This document shows positions 8,663 through 26,169 of a DNA stretch of 63,580 nucleotides, in pieces (within the stretch, counting starts at the first letter, position 1; every line of letters starts with the position of its first letter). This DNA is from an uncultured Selenomonadaceae bacterium (GTDB lineage Bacteria; Bacillota; Negativicutes; Selenomonadales; Selenomonadaceae), in assembly GCA_905235685.1 (NCBI GenBank), contig CAJOMO010000006.1, positions 1 through 63,580 of the forward strand, in the 5' to 3' direction. Position numbers and translations under genes: made by a program. The notes under the pieces are model-generated. The model had not been told where the DNA came from, made no database searches, and saw nothing but the letters and a program-made list of their open reading frames with translations.

Positions 8663-9328
8663 GTGATTTCTGAGTGGGAATTATTTTTTAGATTAACGCT
8701 TGCCTGTGTATTGGGCGGCGTGATAGGATATGAGCGGCAAAGTCGGCGTAAATCTGCCGGTTTGCGAACGAATGTCCTTGTGTGTCTCGGCTCGTGCTTG
8801 ATAATGGTTTTAAGCGAGGCATTATATTTTAACGTTGAGGGGCGGACGAATGCTGACCCTGCGCGATTGGCGGCGCAAGTTGTCAGCGGAATTGGTTTCC
8901 TTGGCGCGGGCGCAATTATGAAAGAAGGTTTGACTGTAACGGGGCTTACGACGGCGGCGTGTATTTGGGCGGTATCGGGCGTAGGATTGGCTGTGGGCGC
9001 GGGTTATTATTCGGGCGCACTTTTCACCACGGCGCTGATTTTTTCCACGCTCGGCACTCTTTCGCGCATTGACGAATGGGTTATGCACGAAAAAAATTTG
9101 TACCTTACAATTCACACGCACGAAAGACCAGGGCAGCTAATGCACATAAGTTCCTGTATTGACGATTTACAGCTTAAAGTTCGCGGCGTCAAAGTCAAAG
9201 CGGACGAAGAGCATTCAGATATTTTATGCATAGATTTTGAAGTTTACAATCACCGGAGTTTGAAAAGCATTGTCGTTGTTGACGCGATTAAGCGGATTGA
9301 GGGCGTTGTCAGCGTAGATGTAAATTAA
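8663..9328 (+). CDS. MgtC/SapB-family membrane protein
   Basis: Inner-membrane protein of the MgtC family, linked in other bacteria to growth in low magnesium and to control of the F-ATPase. The N-terminal half has four to five hydrophobic segments with the family motifs GGVIGYERQ..SAGLRTN and GIGFLGAGAIM. The C-terminal cytoplasmic part (about 145-221) looks like the small ACT-like domain of this family. GTG 8663 is preferred over GTG 8654 because AGGTGA (8652-8657) then sits at the right distance. No magnesium-sensing leader was recognised upstream. Confidence 0.88.
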   Translation: MISEWELFFRLTLACVLGGVIGYERQSRRKSAGLRTNVLVCLGSCLIMVLSEALYFNVEGRTNADPARLAAQVVSGIGFLGAGAIMKEGLTVTGLTTAACIWAVSGVGLAVGAGYYSGALFTTALIFSTLGTLSRIDEWVMHEKNLYLTIHTHERPGQLMHISSCIDDLQLKVRGVKVKADEEHSDILCIDFEVYNHRSLKSIVVVDAIKRIEGVVSVDVN

Positions 9329-9346
9329 TTTGAGACGAGGGCAAAA

Positions 9347-10114
9347 ATGATTGACGTACAAAACCAAGTGGACACACGCGGCATTAAAATTCAGCGGACA
9401 GGTGTAACGGGTGTACACCTGCCATTTTTTATTTTGAATCAGCAAGTTTTAGCGGAAATAAGATTTACGGTTGCGCTGAGCGAGAAAATTCGCGGGACGC
9501 ATATGAGCCGATTGATGGAAATTTTAACGGATTGGTCGGGCGTGCCGATAAAAATTTCGGATTTTGAAAAAATTCTGCGCGAGGCGATAGAGAAACTTGA
9601 CACGGATTTTGCGGCGATTAAATTTGCGTTTAAATTTTTTGTGAAACGGAAAGCGCCGGTTTCCGAACGAATTTCGCTATTGGATATTGATTGTGAAATT
9701 GCGGCTGAACTTTCGCGCAGTGGTGAATTTAATTTCAGTTTGAAATTGGCTGTGCCGTTTACGTCGCTGTGTCCTTGCAGCAAAGAAATTTCGGATTTCG
9801 GCGCGCACAATCAGCGCTCGATTTGCCGCGTGAAATTGGATTTTGCCGACGTTAAAAATATCGATATTGAAAAAATTGTACAGCTGATTGAAAGTCAAGG
9901 TTCAAGCAAGATTTATCCCGTGCTCAAGCGCGAAGACGAAAAATTTGTTACCGAAACTGCATATCAAAATCCTAAATTTGTTGAAGATATTTTGCGCGAC
10001 GTTGTCCTTGCGGTTCGGCAGATTGAAAATATTTCCGCGTTTGAAATTGAGTGCGAGAATTTTGAATCAATTCACAACCACAACGCCTTTGCCGCTCATA
10101 AAGAAAATCTTTAG
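9347..10114 (+). CDS. folE2: GTP cyclohydrolase FolE2 (type IB)
   Basis: Converts GTP to dihydroneopterin triphosphate, the first step to folate (and to queuosine-type bases). The metal-flexible type IB enzyme is recognised by VQNQVDTRGI at the start, TSLCPCSKEIS (about 138-148, with the metal Cys) and GAHNQRS (about 152-158), and a length of 255 residues. ATG 9347 with GACGAGGG upstream. It may be read through from mgtC, whose stop is 18 bases upstream. FolE2 is often the back-up enzyme under zinc limitation; no Zur site was identified here. Confidence 0.93.
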   Translation: MIDVQNQVDTRGIKIQRTGVTGVHLPFFILNQQVLAEIRFTVALSEKIRGTHMSRLMEILTDWSGVPIKISDFEKILREAIEKLDTDFAAIKFAFKFFVKRKAPVSERISLLDIDCEIAAELSRSGEFNFSLKLAVPFTSLCPCSKEISDFGAHNQRSICRVKLDFADVKNIDIEKIVQLIESQGSSKIYPVLKREDEKFVTETAYQNPKFVEDILRDVVLAVRQIENISAFEIECENFESIHNHNAFAAHKENL

Positions 10115-10115
10115 T

Positions 10116-10272
10116 TCAGCATTTCTTTTTTAGAAAAAGAAACGCTGGCAAAGAAAAATCGCCCGCGCTAATGTAATTCGCTTCCAGCTCATACTAAAGA
10201 GCATGCCTTGCTGCGCAAGCCACGCAGGGGCGCGGGCGGGGGTTCGGGGCGCTCATCCGTGAGCGCCCTTTT
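10116..10272 (+). repeat. Three-hairpin intergenic repeat, copy 2 (expanded middle)
   Basis: Between the convergent folE2 and ABC transporter genes. The first hairpin has arms CAGCATTTCTTTTT and AAAAAGAAACGCTG (10118-10147). The linker CAAAGAAAA and the last hairpin (GGGCGCTCATCCGTGAGCGCCC followed by eight T) match the other copies. The middle module differs: CGCCCGCGC and GCGCGGGCG arms enclose about 50 bases of unrelated sequence instead of the TTGTCAC palindrome. The terminal T run makes it a good terminator for folE2. Confidence 0.75.
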
Positions 10273-10292
10273 TTTTGTTATGTTTAAAATTT

Positions 10293-11024
10293 TTATTGCA
10301 ATGTGGAAAATAAATTCTGCATTTCGGCTGACGAAAATACTTCCGGCACATTTCCAAATTTTAAAATGCGCTTGTTTAACAATATCACGCGGTCGGCGTA
10401 TTTTTTCACCATGTCTAAATCGTGTGAGATTAGCAAAATTGCCATGTCTTCCTCTGCGCATAACTTAGCCGCCAATTCGTAAAATATTTTTAAGCCGATT
10501 TCGTCAACGCCACTCACCGGTTCGTCCAACAATAATAAATCTGGCAATGGATCAAGCGCCAACGCCAATAAAACTCGTTGCAATTCGCCACCAGATAACG
10601 CCCCCAATCGCCTGTCGATTAAATATTCCGCTTGCACGCGCTGCAAATTTTTCAAAACGCGCGCACGTATCGATTTCGCCGAAAATAACCATACCGGTCG
10701 CCACGTCAAACACGCCATAAATAAATCCAGTACCGAAGTCGGACTTGTCGCGTCGAATTTCAATGTCTGCGGAACGTAGCCGATTATTGGGCGCAAATGT
10801 TTTCCCTTCGCGTCGAAATAATTTAGTTTGCCGATATGCGCCACTTCGCCCAAAATCGACTTCAACAGCGTGGATTTTCCCGCACCGTTCGGTCCAATCA
10901 GCGCCGTTAATTCGCCACAATTCAGCGTAAAATTTACATCTTGAAAAATAATCAGTTCGCCGACTTGCACGCCAAAATTTTCAACCCGCGTTTCGCACAA
11001 TTTTTCTCTGTGATGTTTGCGCAT
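10293..11024 (-). CDS. ABC transporter ATP-binding protein (metal-transporter-like)
   Basis: Nucleotide-binding subunit of an ABC system. Walker A GPNGAGKST (about 41-49), Q-loop YVPQ, signature LSGGELQ, Walker B LLLLDEP and H-loop LISHD are all present. In sequence style (AVSGVDEIG, ISHDLDMVKKYADRVILLNK) it resembles ZnuC/MntB-type metal importer ATPases, yet the partner gene encodes an ABC-2 type permease of exporters. ATG 11024 overlaps the permease stop as TGATG, indicating translational coupling; the in-frame TTG one codon earlier is less likely. Substrate unknown. Confidence 0.88.
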   Translation of the reverse strand: MRKHHREKLCETRVENFGVQVGELIIFQDVNFTLNCGELTALIGPNGAGKSTLLKSILGEVAHIGKLNYFDAKGKHLRPIIGYVPQTLKFDATSPTSVLDLFMACLTWRPVWLFSAKSIRARVLKNLQRVQAEYLIDRRLGALSGGELQRVLLALALDPLPDLLLLDEPVSGVDEIGLKIFYELAAKLCAEEDMAILLISHDLDMVKKYADRVILLNKRILKFGNVPEVFSSAEMQNLFSTLQ

Positions 11025-18982: not shown

Positions 18983-19354
18983 TTACGGATTTTCGACTGT
19001 GTAACCGTAAATGCTCATCTTTATGCAATGCTTTTTGACTTTGTCGGCAATCGGATCTAAATCAGTTGAACGCCATTGCAGGGGCGGGGCGTCCTGCTTG
19101 TGTGCGTAAACCCAACCGGCGGACGCTTTGATAAAATACGGCTTGTAGCCCAAAATTTGGTTGCCGTCCATAACCTTTACGTAGCACTTCATAAAATCGG
19201 CGGAATATTTCCCCATGTGGAGCGCCTCATAAGTTTCTGACATAAAGTAGCCGCGCGTGCCGTCTGAATACGTGCCGACGTAATAATCTTGCGCCGAAAC
19301 CTGCGCGAAGAAAATTCCGAACAGCAACGTCGTCATTGCTAAAATTTTTTTCAT
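18983..19354 (-). CDS. Small secreted protein, array member 7 (type A)
   Basis: Last gene of the seven-gene array of small exported proteins. 123 residues from ATG 19354 (GGAAGTGAT upstream; three earlier codons are in frame but precede the Lys-rich start). Signal peptide MKKILAMTTLLFGIFFAQVSA with a cut after VSA. The mature part begins DYYVGTYSDGTRGYFM, a pattern shared with members 2, 3 and 5: hydrophobic-Y, then G or D, then a second Tyr strand. Two Cys (MKCYVK and KKHCIK) could form a disulfide. Function unknown; resembles the small surface-adhesin-like beta proteins common in this group, but I cannot assign it. Confidence 0.7.
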   Translation of the reverse strand: MKKILAMTTLLFGIFFAQVSAQDYYVGTYSDGTRGYFMSETYEALHMGKYSADFMKCYVKVMDGNQILGYKPYFIKASAGWVYAHKQDAPPLQWRSTDLDPIADKVKKHCIKMSIYGYTVENP

Positions 19355-19370
19355 TGAAATCACTTCCGAT

Positions 19371-19673
19371 TTAATAATCTGTCACCTGTTTCCAATTTCC
19401 ATTTTTAAAAATGTAATATGACGCGAAGAATGAATTTGGCCAATAATGTTCGCCATTGGTTTGAGAATTACTGCAACCATAACGCGGCGGAGCTTCGTCT
19501 CTAGCAATAAGCTGCTTATTTCTGTAAAAGCTTTTTTCATAGTAAGTCTTTAAACACCACCCGCAGGTATGCTCATAAACCACTGCCTTGTCGCCTTCCT
19601 GCGGAGTATAAGCCTGCGCCTGCGAAATCTGCGCGAACAAAATTATTGCCGCCGCCAGTAAAAATTTTTTCAT
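19371..19673 (-). CDS. Small secreted Cys protein, array member 6 (type Z)
   Basis: 100 residues with signal peptide MKKFLLAAAIILFAQISQAQA. The mature part has EHTCGWC, then about 35 residues later YGCSNSQTNGEHYW: a CxxC, GC, HxW arrangement also found in members 1 and 4 and suggesting a zinc-ribbon-like or disulfide fold outside the cytoplasm. Ends GNWKQVTDY, comparable to NGEWRRM at the end of member 4. AGGAG upstream of ATG 19673. Unknown function. Confidence 0.7.
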   Translation of the reverse strand: MKKFLLAAAIILFAQISQAQAYTPQEGDKAVVYEHTCGWCLKTYYEKSFYRNKQLIARDEAPPRYGCSNSQTNGEHYWPNSFFASYYIFKNGNWKQVTDY

Positions 19674-19685
19674 TGCGCTCAGCTC

Positions 19686-20045
19686 CTATTTGTTTTCAAT
19701 AGCCGTCTTGAAAATGGCGAAGTAATAATCCGAAAGGACAGTATCGCCGCGCGTAACCTGCACCGTGGCATCGTCAATAAATCCATGGTGCAGGACGGCG
19801 TACAAATTGTCATTCTCAACTTTAAAGCCGAGTCCCCAATACTTATTCATTTTGTAATTCCTGCCGATTGAGTGCAGCGTAATTTTGAAACCGTAATCTG
19901 TCTCTTGAAAAGTACCCAAAATCATATAGACATCCGCAACTTTGCCGTCTTTGGTTACTTCGGTTGCCGCGTAAACGTCCGCCGCCCGCGCCTGCCCGAA
20001 CATTAAGCAGAAAATTACCGTCGTTGCCAGCAGAAATTTTTTCAT
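19686..20045 (-). CDS. Small secreted protein, array member 5 (type A)
   Basis: 119 residues from ATG 20045; the ribosome binding site GGAGG lies 11 bases upstream, inside the last codons of member 4. Signal peptide MKKFLLATTVIFCLMFGQARA. The mature chain ADVYAATEVTKDGKVADVYMI is Cys-free and predicted to be mostly beta strands. Part of the same minus-strand transcript. Unknown function; grouped with type A on the position and spacing of the Tyr/Gly strands, a weak similarity. Confidence 0.65.
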   Translation of the reverse strand: MKKFLLATTVIFCLMFGQARAADVYAATEVTKDGKVADVYMILGTFQETDYGFKITLHSIGRNYKMNKYWGLGFKVENDNLYAVLHHGFIDDATVQVTRGDTVLSDYYFAIFKTAIENK

Positions 20046-20047
20046 TG

Positions 20048-20329
20048 TTACATTCGCCTCCATTCGCCATTAGAAAAAATGTACCTTTCGTTGCTGTAAA
20101 TGCGATTCCACTTGTGAGCGATTTTTTTGTTGCTGTGGCAGCCGTAAGTCGGCGGATTCGGGTCGGAATATTTATGCGGCTCAATGACGATTTGCTTATA
20201 ATTTTCGTCGCACTCTTCGCAGTGCCAGAAATAGACAATCGCCACGTCGCCGTATTGCGGCTGATAAGCCTCCGCCTGCGCCGCAAAAATCCCAATCACC
20301 AACGCCGCCATTGCGAAAATCTTTTTCAT
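20048..20329 (-). CDS. Small secreted Cys protein, array member 4 (type Z)
   Basis: 93 residues from ATG 20329 with GGGGTGATT upstream. Signal peptide MKKIFAMAALVIGIFAAQAEA. Mature part YQPQYGDVAIVYFWHCEEC, then PTYGCHSNKKIAHKW: the same CxxC, GC, H-W order as members 1 and 6, and YxPQxGD-A-VY at the N terminus matches member 6 closely. Members 4 and 6 are evidently duplicates. Overlaps or abuts its neighbours within the array. Confidence 0.7.
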   Translation of the reverse strand: MKKIFAMAALVIGIFAAQAEAYQPQYGDVAIVYFWHCEECDENYKQIVIEPHKYSDPNPPTYGCHSNKKIAHKWNRIYSNERYIFSNGEWRRM

Positions 20330-20334
20330 TTGAA

Positions 20335-20721
20335 TCACCCCGCCGCTTGTAATCTAGCCATCAGTATGCTGCCGATAACTTTATTTTCAATTTGGTAAAC
20401 GCCTGGATTTGTATCGGTAAAACTGCCGCTGCCGCCTTCAGAATCCACAAACGAAATGTAACTCAAATTCTCGCCGCTATAGTGAAGTGTGAATCTGTAA
20501 TCGATAAATTTAACCGTACCGCGCGGAGATACCGCCTTCAACCTGCAGGGCTGATAAAATTCTGTTTCGGACGCATTGCTCGTAAAGTCGCCAATGTCAA
20601 CCAGATACGCCTTCCAGCCGCCTTCCCAAGTCCCCATGTAAATTTCTGCCGCGTCTGCCTGCGAAATCTGCGCGATTAAAATTCCGAAAACAAGCGCCGC
20701 CACTGCGAAAAATTTTTTCAT
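20335..20721 (-). CDS. Small secreted protein, array member 3 (type A)
   Basis: 128 residues from ATG 20721, with GGGAGCGGTGATT upstream. Signal peptide MKKFFAVAALVFGILIAQIS and a cut near ADA. The mature chain begins AEIYMGTWEGGWKAYLVDIGDF, aligning by eye with the YVGTYSDGTRGYFM start of member 7. One Cys. Ends QAAG two bases before the start codon region of member 4. Unknown function. Confidence 0.68.
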   Translation of the reverse strand: MKKFFAVAALVFGILIAQISQADAAEIYMGTWEGGWKAYLVDIGDFTSNASETEFYQPCRLKAVSPRGTVKFIDYRFTLHYSGENLSYISFVDSEGGSGSFTDTNPGVYQIENKVIGSILMARLQAAG

Positions 20722-20726
20722 AACAA

Positions 20727-21101
20727 TCACCGCTCCCTTACCGTTCCGGTCATAACATATTCCATAACCCACATAAAAGGTCCATCCCCCGAGTCAATCT
20801 CGCGCCAGTCAAAATTATGCGTCACGTCGCGCATGTAAAGTTTGTTTGCCCGCTGATCGTAGACGTATTGAAGAACAGAATCCAGAATCGTCGAGCCGTC
20901 GGGGCGAATACCAACAACGCGCACTATTACTCCGATAAGCCCCTTGTCTTGGTCAACGCCATGCGAAATCGAATCAGTATCAATATAAGTTTTATAGCCG
21001 GTGTCGCTGGTATCGCAGAGCAGGAGTTTGGCATTCGCGCTGCTGGACAAAAAAATCAAACACGCACCCGCTAAAATCGCTACCGCGCAAAATTTTTTCA
21101 T
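20727..21101 (-). CDS. Small secreted protein, array member 2 (type A)
   Basis: 124 residues from ATG 21101 with GAGGTGATT upstream. Signal peptide MKKFCAVAILAGACLIFLS followed by SSANA. The mature part LLLCDTSDTGYKTYIDTDSIS resembles the opening of surface-adhesin E-like domains (strand, turn, YIDxxSI); this is suggestive only. Contains a conserved-looking REIDSGDGPFMWVMEYV segment near the end. Second gene of the array transcript. Confidence 0.68.
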   Translation of the reverse strand: MKKFCAVAILAGACLIFLSSSANAKLLLCDTSDTGYKTYIDTDSISHGVDQDKGLIGVIVRVVGIRPDGSTILDSVLQYVYDQRANKLYMRDVTHNFDWREIDSGDGPFMWVMEYVMTGTVRER

Positions 21102-21106
21102 TTGAA

Positions 21107-21343
21107 TCACCTCATCGAAGTACCGAGCGCCCACCAATTATGTTCGCCGGTTGGACTTTTCGGGCAACCTTTTTTGCTCGGCGCAGGAATTTTATTCGTG
21201 TTGACGTCATATTTACTTTCAACCACGATACCGCAATTCCGGCACTTGAATTTGCCGACGGGCATTGCAGATTCGGCGTCCGAAGGTATCGACGCTGCGA
21301 AAAACCCTGCCGCCAAAAGAATTACCGCTAAAATTTTTCTCAT
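21107..21343 (-). CDS. Small secreted Cys protein, array member 1 (type Z)
   Basis: First gene of the array, directly behind the promoter at 21378. 78 residues, signal peptide MRKILAVILLAAGFFAASIPS with a cut near DAES. Mature part GKFKCRNCGIVVESKYD, then KKGCPKSPTGEHNWW: the compact CxxCG, GC, HxW order of a zinc ribbon, shared with members 4 and 6. AGGAGG upstream of ATG 21343. Being exported, it may instead form disulfides. Confidence 0.72.
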   Translation of the reverse strand: MRKILAVILLAAGFFAASIPSDAESAMPVGKFKCRNCGIVVESKYDVNTNKIPAPSKKGCPKSPTGEHNWWALGTSMR

Positions 21344-21377: not shown

Positions 21378-21420
21378 ATCATAGCAGATAAATTTTTAAA
21401 AATAATTACCGCGCCGGTAA
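21378..21420 (-). promoter_or_regulatory. Promoter/operator of the secreted-protein array
   Basis: On the minus strand: palindrome TTACC-GGCGC-GGTAA (21420-21406), then 22 bases, then a perfect TATGAT -10 (21383-21378), then about 28 bases of leader to ATG 21343. No recognisable -35 is present; the palindrome sits next to where it would be, as in activator-dependent promoters. The same palindrome with the same 22-base distance is found at 25646-25688. The upstream half overlaps the last codons and stop of the kinase gene. Confidence 0.7.
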
Positions 21421-22479
21421 ACTTTCAAGGAAGATTGATTTTTTTGGGAAGGATGGCTTAAAATTTTCCAGCGTGACGTTTTCTGTCGGAAATGACGGCT
21501 GAAAATTCTCAAGCGTGGTTTCGGATTCTGTTTCAGTTTCCGGCTCTGGCGTTGGCTCAATAATTTCCGGCTCGGGTTCGGGTTCGACAATTTCCGTCTC
21601 ATATTCCGGCTCGGGTTCGGGCTCGACAATTTCCGGTACATATTCCGGCTCGGGCGTCGGTTCGATTGTTTCAGATTTAATTTCGGGCGCGGGAATTTTT
21701 TCAGTGGCGGCGGGAATTTCCGGCTCATTCGTCGAATTGTGAATTAAAAGTATCGCCAAAATAATTATCACTATCGCGCAGATTTTTTTAATCGGAAATT
21801 TTTTCTGCAAGGCAACTTTCAATTCGTCGGCGGATTGATAACGATTTTTCGGGTCGACTTCGATGCACTTTGCCAAAATTTTTTTCAGCCCGCCGCAATT
21901 TTCGCCCGTCAGCTCCAACATAGTTTTTCCCAGCGAAAAAATATCACTGCGCGAATCTGTTTGCCCAAAACCGTACTGCTCCGGCGGCGCATAACCTTTC
22001 GTGCCCAGCAAATTCGTATCGACGCTTTGATTGTCCTTGACAGTGCGGGCGGCGTCAAAATCTATCAGCCGAATGTTCCCGCCGCTTTGCAAAATCAAAT
22101 TCGACGGCTTGATATCGCGGTGAATAATCCCCAGTCCGTGCAGAAATTTCAAGACTTCGCACATTTGCAGCAAAATCTTTCGCGCCTCGGCTTCAGTCAA
22201 TAAATTTTCGCGCGCGCTCATATTTTCGCCCGCAATGAATTCTTCGACAACGACCGTGTCATTTTCCGATTCCGCGCAATAAAAAATTTTCGCCAAAAAC
22301 GGATGCGGATTTTTCTTCAGCGTCAAATATGGCAAGCCGACGCTGTTTATGATTTTCATTATGACCGGCTCGTTCGTTGCCTTGTTCAGCGCCAGCCACA
22401 CTTCGCCCTTGCCGCTTTTTTTAATCAGCCGCATTTTTTCGTAGCGAAATTCCAAATACGCCGCTACTTTCGGTTTCAA
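21406..22479 (-). CDS. Membrane-anchored Ser/Thr protein kinase with Pro/Glu-rich tail
   Basis: 357 residues from TTG 22479 (GGAGG eight bases upstream; the longer frame to 22545 overlaps the ABC gene). Compact kinase domain about 10-235: KKSGKGEVW loop, VIMKI Lys, HRDIKPSN, IDFDAAR (DFD in place of DFG), APPEQYG. One membrane helix (about 240-256, ICAIVIIILAILLIHNS). Outside it, a Pro/Glu stretch of repeated EPEPE/EPTPEP is followed by two clear copies and one degenerate copy of LENFxPSFP at the C terminus. Lies between the exporter and the secreted-protein array in the same orientation; probably a signalling component of this locus. Confidence 0.85.
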   Translation of the reverse strand: MKPKVAAYLEFRYEKMRLIKKSGKGEVWLALNKATNEPVIMKIINSVGLPYLTLKKNPHPFLAKIFYCAESENDTVVVEEFIAGENMSARENLLTEAEARKILLQMCEVLKFLHGLGIIHRDIKPSNLILQSGGNIRLIDFDAARTVKDNQSVDTNLLGTKGYAPPEQYGFGQTDSRSDIFSLGKTMLELTGENCGGLKKILAKCIEVDPKNRYQSADELKVALQKKFPIKKICAIVIIILAILLIHNSTNEPEIPAATEKIPAPEIKSETIEPTPEPEYVPEIVEPEPEPEYETEIVEPEPEPEIIEPTPEPETETESETTLENFQPSFPTENVTLENFKPSFPKKSIFLESLPAR

Positions 22480-22513
22480 ATTTATCGCCTCCGCCCAAAA
22501 TTTTACCACAATT

Positions 22514-23983
22514 TTAAATTTCAATGACGGAATCGGCAATTTCAACCAGGCGCGCGTCGTGCGTGATTATAATCGTCAGCCGCTCCATTTTGCCGGAAAT
22601 AATTTTTTCGCGCAGATTTTTTATACCGGAATCGTCAAGGTTGTTATCGGGCTCATCCATAATCACCACGCCGACGTTTTTGTTGAAAGTTTCAGCGATT
22701 GTAAATTTTTTGCGCTCGCCGCCGGACAAGTTATCATTGCGACGAAAATCTTTCTGCGCGACGACCGCTATACAATTTTTTCGAATAAAAGCCATATCCA
22801 CCGCGCCAATTTCCACGCCGTTGTAAAAAATCTCGCCGTCATTCGCCCGCAAAATCCCGCACAGAATATTTATCAGCGTGGATTTGCCCGCGCCGTTTTT
22901 CCCAACAATGCAGTAAATTTTGCCGCGCCGAAATTCGCCGGAAAAATTTTTGACAATGGCGCGCCCTTTAATTTCGTAAAAAATATTTTTCGCCGAAATT
23001 CTATTCACGGTTTCGAACTTCACAGCGCCGTTAATTTCGGGCGGAATTTCTTCGATTTTTAAAATCCGCTGATAAGCCGCCGCGGCATCTTGAAAACTTT
23101 GCCCAAAACTCATAAAATAAGAAACGCTCTGCATCGCCAGCGCGTAATAACCGATAAGCGCAACCAAATTGCCGACGGTCATTTCGCCGCTCAAAACGTC
23201 AAGCCCGCCGAGAATGAAAACTATAATCCGGAAAACGTCACTGGAATTGACTTCGGTACTTACAAACCAAAATTTTACTCTAATTTCGCGCAGGACGGCG
23301 TTCAGATAATCGGCGAATTTATTTTTCAGAGCGGCGGCAAATTCTTCGTGAAGTCCGTGCAACTTCACAGCGTAAGCGTAAACAAGGTTATCGGCAATAT
23401 CGGTAAAATATTTCGCCTCGTTTTCGCGCAGGGCGATTGAGCGGTTGAATAGCGTTTGCGATAAGATTTTGTACAGCGAAATGTGCAGGATTAACACGCA
23501 AAAAAATAGAGCCAGCCACTTTGCGCCGATTGTCGCCAATAAAAAAATCGCCAGCCCCAGCATGACGAAATTTATGCACAATTCGACGGCACTGTTAACC
23601 GCGAAAGACATCAGCCCGCGCGCGTCCGCGTCTATTCGCTTCGACAAGTAAACCATATCCGTTTGAAGTACAAATTCGCCCCGCGCATTTTGCACGCGCC
23701 GCAAAATTTCCGATATCAGCCGGTACGTCGACACCGTTTCAATTCTGCGCGAAAAAATTGTGCAGGCGTAATGTGCTGTCAGCGCCGACGCGAATACCCC
23801 GAACATTAACACAACAAAATCGCGAAACGCCGCAACGTCCCGCGCTGTCAAAATTTCGTCTATGAATTTCGCCGTCAAAAATGGCACAAGCAAATCTGTC
23901 GCCGATATTAAAATTGAGCAAATCGCAATGATTATGAATGTGCCACGGAAAATTTTTAGCCGACTCCATATGAATTGAAACAT
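22514..23983 (-). CDS. ABC exporter, fused membrane and ATPase domains, shortened helical subdomain
   Basis: Single-chain half-transporter of 489 residues: six membrane helices (about 1-290) and a C-terminal ATPase with Walker A GKNGAGKST, Walker B VVIMDEP and H-loop THD. Between the Q-loop Gln (VVAQKDF) and the signature LSGGERKK there are only about eight residues, where about 45 are usual, so the helical subdomain that contacts the membrane domain is nearly absent. No N-terminal C39 peptidase. ATG 23983 follows the maturase stop directly (TAAATG). Likely exports the modified peptide, but the short ATPase makes activity uncertain. Confidence 0.85.
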   Translation of the reverse strand: MFQFIWSRLKIFRGTFIIIAICSILISATDLLVPFLTAKFIDEILTARDVAAFRDFVVLMFGVFASALTAHYACTIFSRRIETVSTYRLISEILRRVQNARGEFVLQTDMVYLSKRIDADARGLMSFAVNSAVELCINFVMLGLAIFLLATIGAKWLALFFCVLILHISLYKILSQTLFNRSIALRENEAKYFTDIADNLVYAYAVKLHGLHEEFAAALKNKFADYLNAVLREIRVKFWFVSTEVNSSDVFRIIVFILGGLDVLSGEMTVGNLVALIGYYALAMQSVSYFMSFGQSFQDAAAAYQRILKIEEIPPEINGAVKFETVNRISAKNIFYEIKGRAIVKNFSGEFRRGKIYCIVGKNGAGKSTLINILCGILRANDGEIFYNGVEIGAVDMAFIRKNCIAVVAQKDFRRNDNLSGGERKKFTIAETFNKNVGVVIMDEPDNNLDDSGIKNLREKIISGKMERLTIIITHDARLVEIADSVIEI

Positions 23984-25258
23984 TTATAATTCCTTGAGCG
24001 TTGACAAATTTATAAGTTCGCGAACAATCGTCAGCCGCTCATATTCGCAAAAATCGCCGGCAATGTCCAGGTCGCCGTTTTCGATAAAATTTCGCGCTTG
24101 ACAAGAGCCGCCGCAAATTAATTTGAAGTCACAGCCGCGGCATTTGGAAATATTATCGGCGGTATGGATTTTGAATTTTCTCAGCGCCGGTGAATTGTAA
24201 ATTTCGGCAAGGGAACTTTCCCGAATGTTTCCGACTTTGAAGAGCGGATTATGCAGGAGCGCGCAGGGGTAAACATCGCCGCTGTGCGAAATGCTGATTT
24301 GCCCGTCGCCGAGCCCGCATTTGATTTGAGTTTTTTTCGTGCGGTAATGTTCGGGGATTTTTGCAAGAAATTCGTGGAAGATAACGTTGTCCGAGGCGCG
24401 CGTCATTGCGTCGAAATAATCTTTGCCGGAAATTTTGAGCGCGTCATAAAGTTTCGGATTTGCGAAAGGAAACAGCGGCTGAAAATCCACTTCGCTGCCC
24501 CATTTGTCAATCATCGCCGCCACGTCGTCCAGATTTTTTTTGCTGACAACCATCATCAGCTGAATTTCGACGCCGTGATTTTTCAACAAAGTTATAGCGC
24601 GTTCGGTTTTGGCGAAATTCCCATTTCCGCGAAAATAATCGTGAACAGCGGCGCGGCTGCCGTCGAGGCTGATTTGGACGTGGCTAAAATTTTCTGCGAT
24701 AACGCCGATATTTTTTTCGTCAATGAGCGTGGCGTTCGTCATGAGCATACAATCAAGCCCGCGGGTTTTGGCGTAAGCGGCGGCGGGGATTGTCACGCCG
24801 GAAGTGAGCGCCTCGCCGCCCGTGAAAATTACGCCAATCTTTGGATTCAGCGCGGCAATTTCGTCGACAATTCGCTTGTAGTCTTCGATACCTAGATTTT
24901 GTTTAGATTCGTCGCGCAGGGAATTAACGCAGTAAACGCAATTCAAATTGCAGGCGTCGGTTATGTTCAAATAGACGTTGCGCAAATCTGAAGGCGCGTA
25001 TTCTGTCAATTCGGTGGGCGCGTCGAAAAGGTGTTCGGCTGCCGCTTCTTCCAAAAAATTAATCATTGCCGCAACCGGAAAATCCGGCGCGTAAGTTTGA
25101 AATTCGGCGGCAATTTCGGCGAAAGTTTTTTCTTCCGCATACAATTTTAACAGCAAAACGCCGTTTATGTTCGTCACAACCCACGCCGGAACGGACGGAT
25201 TAAGCACTAAAAATTTTTCGTCCTGCTGATAAATTCTGCATACTTCCGAAAACGCCAC
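23984..25258 (-). CDS. Radical SAM/SPASM peptide maturase with PqqD-like leader-binding domain
   Basis: 424 residues. N-terminal PqqD-like RRE (about 10-90, LNPSVPAWVVTNINGVLLLK onward), which in this class binds the precursor leader. Radical SAM core with CNLNCVYC (about 118-125) and FTGGEAL. C-terminal SPASM domain with Cys at CGLGDG, YPCAL, CRGC, KLICGGSC and FCEYE, enough for two auxiliary iron-sulfur clusters. Enzymes of this build install Cys thioether or related crosslinks in RiPPs (sactipeptide, ranthipeptide) or make quinone cofactors. GTG 25258 with GAGGAGTG upstream, 13 bases after the second precursor gene. Substrates are inferred to be the two peptides just upstream. Confidence 0.93.
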   Translation of the reverse strand: MAFSEVCRIYQQDEKFLVLNPSVPAWVVTNINGVLLLKLYAEEKTFAEIAAEFQTYAPDFPVAAMINFLEEAAAEHLFDAPTELTEYAPSDLRNVYLNITDACNLNCVYCVNSLRDESKQNLGIEDYKRIVDEIAALNPKIGVIFTGGEALTSGVTIPAAAYAKTRGLDCMLMTNATLIDEKNIGVIAENFSHVQISLDGSRAAVHDYFRGNGNFAKTERAITLLKNHGVEIQLMMVVSKKNLDDVAAMIDKWGSEVDFQPLFPFANPKLYDALKISGKDYFDAMTRASDNVIFHEFLAKIPEHYRTKKTQIKCGLGDGQISISHSGDVYPCALLHNPLFKVGNIRESSLAEIYNSPALRKFKIHTADNISKCRGCDFKLICGGSCQARNFIENGDLDIAGDFCEYERLTIVRELINLSTLKEL

Positions 25259-25271
25259 TGAAATTCACTCC

Positions 25272-25418
25272 TCATCTGAAACCTAATGTACAACTGCGGG
25301 CGCTATTGCAATGTCCGCGTGCAACCGGAACTTTCGCGTTTTGAGCCTTATCGACTTTGCCGAGAACGATGCCTTTGCTCTGCGCGATTTTGTCAAATGA
25401 AAAATCCTTAAGCAACAT
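25272..25418 (-). CDS. Candidate RiPP precursor peptide B
   Basis: 48 residues from ATG 25418 with a perfect AAGGAGGTGA upstream. The leader (residues 1-30, MLLKDFSFDKIAQSKG, then IVLGKVDKAQNAKV) is identical to that of peptide A. The core is PVARGHCNSARSCTLGFR, with HC-x5-CT in common with peptide A but otherwise different. Identical leader plus variable core next to a radical SAM/SPASM maturase is the hallmark of a RiPP substrate pair. The stop codon overlaps the ribosome binding site of the maturase. Confidence 0.85.
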   Translation of the reverse strand: MLLKDFSFDKIAQSKGIVLGKVDKAQNAKVPVARGHCNSARSCTLGFR

Positions 25419-25436
25419 TCTGATTCACCTCCTTGC
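25333..25436 (-). repeat. Direct repeat, copy 2 (leader and ribosome binding site of peptide B)
   Basis: 104 bases that match 25520-25623 with one difference that I can see (in the bases before ATG). The repeat covers the ribosome binding site and leader codons and stops where the cores begin, so the duplication was recent or is kept homogeneous while the cores diverged. Confidence 0.9.
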
Positions 25437-25458
25437 GAAAAAATTTTTTGTTGCAATT

Positions 25459-25605
25459 TTATTTGCTGTAAGAAGTGCAGCCGCGAGACGTAGCGCAATG
25501 AACGTGCGCAGTGGAAACCTTCGCGTTTTGAGCCTTATCGACTTTGCCGAGAACGATGCCTTTGCTCTGCGCGATTTTGTCAAATGAAAAATCCTTAAGC
25601 AACAT
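25459..25605 (-). CDS. Candidate RiPP precursor peptide A
   Basis: 48 residues from ATG 25605, first gene of the minus-strand operon, with AAGGAGGTGA upstream. Leader as in peptide B; the core is STAHVHCATSRGCTSYSK. Both cores carry HC-x5-CT and basic or hydroxyl residues, plausible sites for a Cys-based crosslink. No GG cleavage motif and no dedicated protease gene were found nearby. The promoter carries the TTACC-N5-GGTAA palindrome. Confidence 0.85.
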   Translation of the reverse strand: MLLKDFSFDKIAQSKGIVLGKVDKAQNAKVSTAHVHCATSRGCTSYSK

Positions 25606-25623
25606 TTTGATTCACCTCCTTGC
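25520..25623 (-). repeat. Direct repeat, copy 1 (leader and ribosome binding site of peptide A)
   Basis: Partner of 25333-25436, offset by 187 bases. Covers the ribosome binding site and leader of peptide A. Confidence 0.9.
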
Positions 25624-25645
25624 AATACTTAACCCGTTTGAAATA

Positions 25646-25688
25646 ATTTTAGCGGCGAAATGGGCAATTGTACTTACCGCGCAGGTAA
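25646..25688 (-). promoter_or_regulatory. Promoter/operator of the peptide-maturase-exporter operon
   Basis: On the minus strand: palindrome TTACC-TGCGC-GGTAA (25688-25674), 22 bases, then TAAAAT (25651-25646), with ATG of peptide A about 41 bases further on. Fourteen of 15 palindrome positions equal those at 21406-21420 and the distance to -10 is identical. The palindrome also lies about 46 bases upstream of the divergent XRE gene start, so one site may serve both directions. Confidence 0.7.
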
Positions 25689-25734
25689 ATTCGCCCAAAT
25701 TGCCGAATAATCTTGCCGAAGGAGTGAAATAATT

Positions 25735-26169
25735 TTGCACAAAGACACTGAGGATCTTGAAAATGAACTTGCCGCGTCCAAAAACGTCGCCGATTTTTTG
25801 AGCAGCAACAGGGAAAATTTCCGCGAGTTCACCCTTGCCGAATATCTGAATAAATTGCTTGCCGAAAAAAATTTGAGCAAAACGGATATCATTCAAAAAT
25901 CGCAGCTTGATACAACTTACGTTTACCGCGTCTTTTCCGGCATAACAAAAAAACCTGCGCGAACAAAAGTAATTGCTATCGCCTTGGCGCTGGAACTTTC
26001 GCCGAAGGAAACCAATTATCTCTTGTATTACGCAGGCGTCGAAAAATTGTACGTCCGCAATGAATGGGACAGCATTATTTTCTTTGCGCTGGAAAATCAT
26101 TTGAGCGTGCCGGAAACCAATGAACTTTTGCAGGAGTCGAACGAATCGCCGCTATTGGGCGATATTTAG
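25735..26169 (+). CDS. XRE-family HTH transcriptional regulator
   Basis: 144 residues from TTG 25735, GAAGGAG upstream. Cro/C1-type HTH at about 35-95 (LAEYLNKLLAEKNLSKTDII, then TTYVYRVFSGITKKPARTKV), followed by a helical C-terminal part with KETNYLLYYAGVEKLYVRNEWD. No second enzymatic domain. Divergent from the peptide operon with about 130 bases between, the usual place for a local regulator. It is the obvious candidate to bind the TTACC-N5-GGTAA palindromes. Its stop overlaps the end of convergent mfd by four bases. Confidence 0.88.
   Translation: MHKDTEDLENELAASKNVADFLSSNRENFREFTLAEYLNKLLAEKNLSKTDIIQKSQLDTTYVYRVFSGITKKPARTKVIAIALALELSPKETNYLLYYAGVEKLYVRNEWDSIIFFALENHLSVPETNELLQESNESPLLGDI

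What the first reader, a model, noticed from the sequence alone, without database searches (positions are those of the whole stretch)
22514..25605. RiPP-like locus: two peptides with identical leaders and different HC-x5-CT cores, radical SAM/SPASM maturase and exporter
Seen: two 48-codon genes (25459-25605, 25272-25418) with the same 30-residue leader and cores that share only HC-x5-CT, each with a strong ribosome binding site, then a PqqD-like/radical SAM/SPASM enzyme and an ABC exporter in tight succession. Known: this enzyme build modifies leader-bearing peptides, often by crosslinking Cys. Inference: the pair are substrates of a new sactipeptide- or ranthipeptide-like family. The peptides are too short for standard gene callers. 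No protease gene is present, so leader removal must come from elsewhere.
Basis: partly seen in the sequence, partly recalled or inferred. Interest (0 to 1): 0.88.

Follow-up and report, generated by a model that had tools for sequence, protein, structure and literature searches.

The report
Streptosactin-type peptide cassette in rumen Selenomonad
A 3.2-kb gene cassette in a Selenomonadaceae bacterium, whose relatives are mostly ruminant-gut bacteria, encodes two tiny peptides, the radical enzyme that probably staples each into two small sulfur rings, and an exporter; it looks like a distant cousin of the streptococcal peptide streptosactin, with simplified cores and an oddly shortened export motor.

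Summary
Two 48-codon genes (25459-25605, 25272-25418, minus strand) share an identical 30-residue leader and differ in their cores; a radical SAM/SPASM enzyme and an ABC exporter follow at once. Thirteen of 13 genomes with an intact relative of the enzyme (at least 35% identity) and readable upstream DNA carry a short peptide with C-x5-C-[STA] just before it; near other gene starts the same test hits 14 of 272. dN/dS of 0.19 between two orthologous precursors supports real coding. The spacing matches mature streptosactin (NASCGPSHSCGGGR, rings Cys-x2-Ser and Cys-x2-Gly), and NCBIfam's StsB is the enzyme's best model, at 196 bits against a cut-off of 625. So this is a streptosactin-like branch, not StsB itself. 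Most relatives encode tandem CGxxxxCxGGGG units in one gene; the window's clade has single, glycine-poor units. The predicted product has two unnested Cys-to-+3 alpha-thioether rings per peptide (-4 Da). The operon is a clean cassette: two sister species have the empty site. Ten of 11 exporters lack about 40 residues between Q-loop and ABC signature. Chemistry, activity and export are untested. Verdict: new variant of a known kind.

The parts
25459..25605 (-). precursor peptide 1, 48 aa, core ...HCATSRGCTSYSK; predicted rings Cys37-Ser40 and Cys43-Tyr46
   Evidence: spacing as in relatives and mature streptosactin (PMC12445099, PMC8172795); ring positions are inference
25272..25418 (-). precursor peptide 2, 48 aa, core ...HCNSARSCTLGFR; predicted rings Cys37-Ala40 and Cys43-Gly46
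   Evidence: core resembles that of G072 copy a (VPVGRGTCSTARSCTSYRK); ring positions are inference
23984..25258 (-). radical SAM/SPASM maturase, 424 aa, with N-terminal RRE-like three-strand, three-helix domain (about residues 5-75), CNLNCVYC cluster motif and SPASM cysteines
   Evidence: pLDDT 86; CteB 5why Z 30.1, rmsd 4.5, 381 aligned, model residues 5-420
22514..23983 (-). ABC exporter, 489 aa, TMD plus NBD fused; no peptidase domain; NBD lacks about 40 residues between Q-loop and LSGGE signature
25606..25734 (.). intergenic region between HTH gene and precursor 1; presumed divergent promoter region
   Evidence: no convincing promoter call
22512..25718 (.). cassette absent from sister species G084 (window 22511 joins 25719) and G078
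25735..26169 (+). XRE-like HTH protein, 144 aa, flanking; candidate regulator (unproven)
   Evidence: (weak HTH_26/HTH_3)
21406..22482 (-). membrane Ser/Thr protein kinase, flanking; pairs with the HTH gene in many genomes without the cassette

Best explanation
A dispensable, cassette-like RiPP operon of streptosactin type. [quoted passage not shown] The ABC exporter moves the product out; the leader is removed by a housekeeping or extracellular protease. The product most likely acts in competition between close relatives. Shown here: gene order, conservation, coding selection, cysteine spacing, predicted fold and cassette nature. Inferred: leader binding, ring chemistry, ring positions, export, trimming and biological role.
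For: Every intact relative with readable upstream DNA has a C-x5-C-[STA] precursor directly upstream (13 genomes; 12 end within 60 nt, and Desulfocapsa a little farther); control 14 of 272 ORF starts. Mature streptosactin NASCGPSHSCGGGR, -4.03 Da (PMC12445099), with Cys25-Ser28 and Cys31-Gly34 (PMC8172795), has the same C-x5-C spacing with acceptors at +3. Relatives have CGTSYECSGGGG-like units. The best NCBIfam model is StsB for the window enzyme and it is also the top hit for five of seven relatives scanned at E below 1e-45. Fold match to CteB over residues 5-420; CteB is also the best solved relative by sequence. Precursor dN/dS 0.13/0.69. Exporter gene found beside the maturase in 11 Selenomonadaceae loci. 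Patchy presence, empty site and decay fit a competition cassette.
Against: The StsB score of 196 bits is far below the 625-bit cut-off, so substrate handling may differ. The window cores lack the GGG motif. CteB, the closest solved enzyme, works on SCIFF peptides, which carry non-alpha thioethers (PMC8326336), so the fold does not fix the linkage. No streptococcal StsB sequence was available for direct comparison. No Rgg-family match and no protease nearby. No mass, expression or activity data.
Confidence: 0.62

Rival explanations
1. Ranthipeptide-like: the same enzyme and precursors form thioethers to a beta or gamma carbon, or with other ring sizes, rather than alpha-carbon bonds at +3.
For: The best solved match is the SCIFF maturase CteB; NxxC ranthipeptides have similarly small rings (PMC8326336). 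Residues at +3 vary (S, A, Y, G, N), and peptide 1 offers other Ser/Thr acceptors.
Against: The best family model is a sactipeptide maturase. Glycine at +3 in many relatives has no beta carbon to link to, which argues for alpha attack at least there.
Confidence: 0.17
2. Other radical SAM chemistry: the enzyme makes C-C or ether crosslinks or epimerises, and the cysteines form a disulfide or bind metal.
For: SPASM enzymes of similar fold do many reactions (one search lists SuiB, PqqE, EpeE and anSME).
Against: Cysteine spacing in the cores is kept across Selenomonadaceae, Treponema, Desulfocapsa and Bacteroidota, while hardly any other core residue is; there is no conserved Trp, Tyr or Lys partner.
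Confidence: 0.12
3. Two-component sactibiotic: the two peptides act together, like thuricin CD, rather than being redundant variants (compatible with the best explanation).
For: The two core types look old: peptide 2 resembles G072 copy a, while the leaders are nearly identical within the window genome.
Against: G056 shows only one precursor gene, so a pair is not obligatory in the clade.
Confidence: 0.2
4. The peptide is a signalling or intracellular factor tied to the flanking HTH/kinase pair, not a competition peptide.
For: In window, G090, G056 and G072 the cassette lies beside an HTH-kinase pair, in two different arrangements.
Against: HTH and kinase relatives occur in 49 of 66 genomes each, mostly without the cassette; loci of the other clade show no such pair nearby; a dedicated exporter is conserved.
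Confidence: 0.12

Closest known systems
Streptosactin (GGG subfamily of streptococcal RaS-RiPPs; GggA/GggB, NCBIfam StsB)
   Same: C-x5-C core with possible acceptors at +3; small precursor with a SPASM radical SAM enzyme; best HMM; relatives of the window locus even share CG....C.GGG cores
   Different: HMM score far below cut-off; window cores lack GGG; two precursor genes; no Rgg match nearby; host is a Negativicute; most relatives have tandem repeats of the unit
CteB / SCIFF ranthipeptide system
   Same: Maturase fold including the leader-binding domain (5why, Z 30.1)
   Different: SCIFF precursors have six cysteines in 45 residues; here two in a 48-residue precursor
Thuricin CD (two-component sactibiotic)
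   Same: Two different core peptides in one operon
   Different: Thuricin CD uses two radical SAM enzymes (PMC12093266 title and abstract) and three alpha-thioether bridges per peptide in a hairpin (PMC8326336); here one enzyme and two cysteines
Ruminococcin C
   Same: Gut sactipeptide that, like streptosactin, departs from the simple hairpin (PMC8326336)
   Different: 44-residue core, four thioether bonds and two maturases (PMC8326336, PMC8188230); unrelated core spacing

Membership tests
StsB family / streptosactin (GGG) proper | Maturase passes the NCBIfam NF045574 cut-off (625 bits) | tested here: not met
   196.5 bits, though best of all NCBIfam models
StsB family / streptosactin (GGG) proper | C-x5-C core with candidate acceptor residues at +3 | tested here: met
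   streptosactin sequence from PMC12445099, rings from PMC8172795
StsB family / streptosactin (GGG) proper | Gly-rich GGG motif after the second Cys | tested here: not met
   absent in window, G056 and G072 cores; present in the other relatives
StsB family / streptosactin (GGG) proper | Rgg/SHP quorum-sensing genes with the cluster | tested here: inconclusive
   the divergent gene is only a weak HTH match with no Rgg family hit; an SHP-like short peptide was not sought
sactipeptides | Cys-to-alpha-carbon thioether in the product | not testable with these tools
   needs mass spectrometry and NMR
sactipeptides | SPASM radical SAM maturase encoded with a Cys-containing leader-core precursor | tested here: met
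[quoted passage not shown]
   two cysteines per precursor
enzymes with a RiPP recognition element (PqqD-like) | N-terminal three-strand, three-helix winged-helix-like domain | tested here: met
   AF2 model: strands 8-12, 15-20, 25-29, helices 31-38, 46-56, 62-74; CteB alignment starts at residue 5; Pfam PqqD not hit

The most novel reading that the evidence does not exclude
One leader-guided enzyme matures two different streptosactin-like cores into a cooperating peptide pair, exported by a family of ABC exporters whose ATPase works without the helical subdomain that normally sits between Q-loop and signature motif, so that ATP use is coupled to transport in a different way.
Probability: 0.15. 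Interest if true: 0.66.

Novelty: new variant of a known kind. Interest (0 to 1): 0.47.

Why it matters
It extends streptosactin-type peptides from streptococci to Negativicutes, Treponema, Desulfocapsa and Bacteroidota. It shows the C-x5-C unit used both as tandem repeats in one precursor and as single, glycine-poor units, which makes unit logic and acceptor tolerance testable with one enzyme family. The exporter's shortened ATPase would be a natural minimal case for studying how ATP use is coupled to transport.

Tried and rejected
Pfam and NCBIfam scans of the precursors: no relevant match. A possible third precursor in the genome at G000:C26 (E 0.0027, with a stop inside) was judged a chance match lying across a long unrelated frame. 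Phage or plasmid carriage: only distant radical SAM proteins were found. Direct comparison with a streptococcal StsB was not possible: the genome search could not be centred there, so the StsB link rests on the HMM and on papers. The exporter structure prediction was poor (pLDDT 48.7), so the NBD shortening rests on sequence alone. Papers describing this family in Selenomonadaceae: none found in the open library (concern SCIFF-type or unspecified clusters). Subscription journals are not covered, so earlier mapping of radical SAM RiPPs may include these loci. No clear promoter could be called.

Full report
Observation. The four genes exist as described on the minus strand. The two 48-residue peptides are identical over residues 1-30 and carry the cores STAHVHCATSRGCTSYSK and PVARGHCNSARSCTLGFR. 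At the DNA level the leader differs at 1 of 87 positions and the core at 26 of 54. The maturase matches Radical_SAM and SPASM; the exporter matches ABC_membrane and ABC_tran and has no peptidase domain.

Relatives. A family-wide search found the maturase in 14 of 189 genomes, all of one genus. A profile search of 380 genomes from 102 genera of the class again found only that genus. A scan of named genomes added Treponema (43%), Desulfocapsa, Prevotella and Porphyromonadaceae (35-36%). Thirteen genomes have an intact maturase of at least 35% identity and readable upstream DNA. In all of them, the window included, a short frame with C-x5-C-[STA] precedes the maturase: 12 end within 60 nt of it, and the Desulfocapsa one is somewhat farther. 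The same 60-nt test at other ORF starts in these loci gave 14 of 272. Loci without a precursor are cut by a contig end (L104, L112), damaged (L109, L110, L111), or distant, at about 31% identity or less (L031, L032, L033). Orthologous precursors of G056 and G072 show dN 0.13 and dS 0.69, so the frames appear to be under purifying selection as proteins; they are short, so the ratio is rough.

What it resembles. Mature streptosactin is NASCGPSHSCGGGR with a loss of 4.03 Da (PMC12445099), with rings Cys25-Ser28 and Cys31-Gly34 (PMC8172795). The spacing C-x5-C with a residue at +3 to serve as acceptor is reproduced in the window: C37/S40 and C43/Y46 in peptide 1, C37/A40 and C43/G46 in peptide 2. 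In relatives the cores are units such as CGTSYECSGGGG, CGSGWNCTGGGG and CGLGTGCSGGGG, repeated two to many times in one gene. The window's clade (window, G056, G072; support 100/100) has single glycine-poor units; its neighbour G079 (88/87, moderate) and the more distant rows with a readable precursor of this kind have the glycine-rich repeats, so single units are most simply derived. The best NCBIfam model for the window enzyme is StsB, but at 196.5 bits against a cut-off of 625; it is also the top hit for five of seven scanned relatives at E below 1e-45. This supports 'works like streptosactin' and not 'is StsB'.

Enzyme. The predicted structure (pLDDT 86.3) has an N-terminal three-strand, three-helix domain, then the radical SAM barrel and the SPASM region. 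The best matches are CteB (5why, Z 30.1, rmsd 4.5, 381 aligned, residues 5-420) and, over the core, anSME; TigE also spans the full length. Invariant cysteines include 103, 107 and 110 and those of the SPASM domain. SCIFF peptides, the substrates of CteB, carry non-alpha thioethers (PMC8326336), so fold does not decide the carbon attacked. Glycine at +3 in many relatives argues for the alpha carbon there.

Exporter. Eleven Selenomonadaceae loci, the window included, have the exporter beside or close to the maturase. In ten, the distance from Walker A to the signature motif is 50 residues, against 92 in the eleventh (G079) and 74-96 in other ABC proteins of the fetched sequences. The HMMER alignment to ABCB1 shows the same gap. 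Walker A, Q-loop, signature, Walker B and H-loop are kept. The missing stretch corresponds to most of the helical subdomain. Structure prediction of the exporter was poor, so this is a sequence-level finding.

Genome context. The operon lies between a divergent XRE-like HTH gene and a membrane Ser/Thr kinase gene. Each of these has relatives in 49 of 66 genomes of the genus, often adjacent to each other and mostly without the operon. In sister species G084, window base 22511 is followed directly by the counterpart of 25719, and G078 is alike apart from a few bases: a clean empty site for a 3.2-kb cassette. Whether the cassette was gained by the window or lost by the sisters is open. In G090, with about 90% identical flanking DNA on the upstream side, the operon is broken by several deletions. 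In G056 and G072 the operon lies on the other side of the kinase of such a pair. Repeated adjacency suggests, but does not prove, a regulatory link.

Reading. The most likely role is a competition peptide with two small rings, in line with streptosactin, which is described as a putative fratricidal agent (PMC13361665). Patchy presence and decay fit this. The leader protease is unknown. The biological role is the least certain step.

Noticed in passing
window 22514-23983; L100-L109: Exporter NBD lacks about 40 residues between Q-loop and signature in 10 of 11 homologues, motifs otherwise intact; G079 keeps them.
   Followed up: partly
L110 (G090:C32) 8865-10553: A sister species with about 90% identical upstream DNA has the operon decayed by many deletions, including the second precursor and the maturase N-terminus.
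   Followed up: partly
L109 upstream of 5030 (G110:C3): Precursor and maturase residues 1-114 are missing, replaced by an ORF that by eye resembles an HNH-type endonuclease (WRDIADYGGKYQVSNFARVRSL); not confirmed by a family search.
   Followed up: no
window 18983-21343 minus strand: Row of small, apparently secreted proteins with similar signal peptides (MKKFxAVAAL...), some with CxxC pairs, downstream of the kinase.
   Followed up: no
window 21406-22482 and 25735-26169: HTH gene plus divergent membrane Ser/Thr kinase: a pair common in the genus, in several paralogous copies; the kinase tail is rich in Glu-Pro repeats.
   Followed up: partly
L027 upstream of 5001; L028; L029: Desulfocapsa, Prevotella and Porphyromonadaceae relatives have multi-unit precursors with four to six or more C-x5-C repeats and no exporter of this type found in the fetched flanks.
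   Followed up: partly
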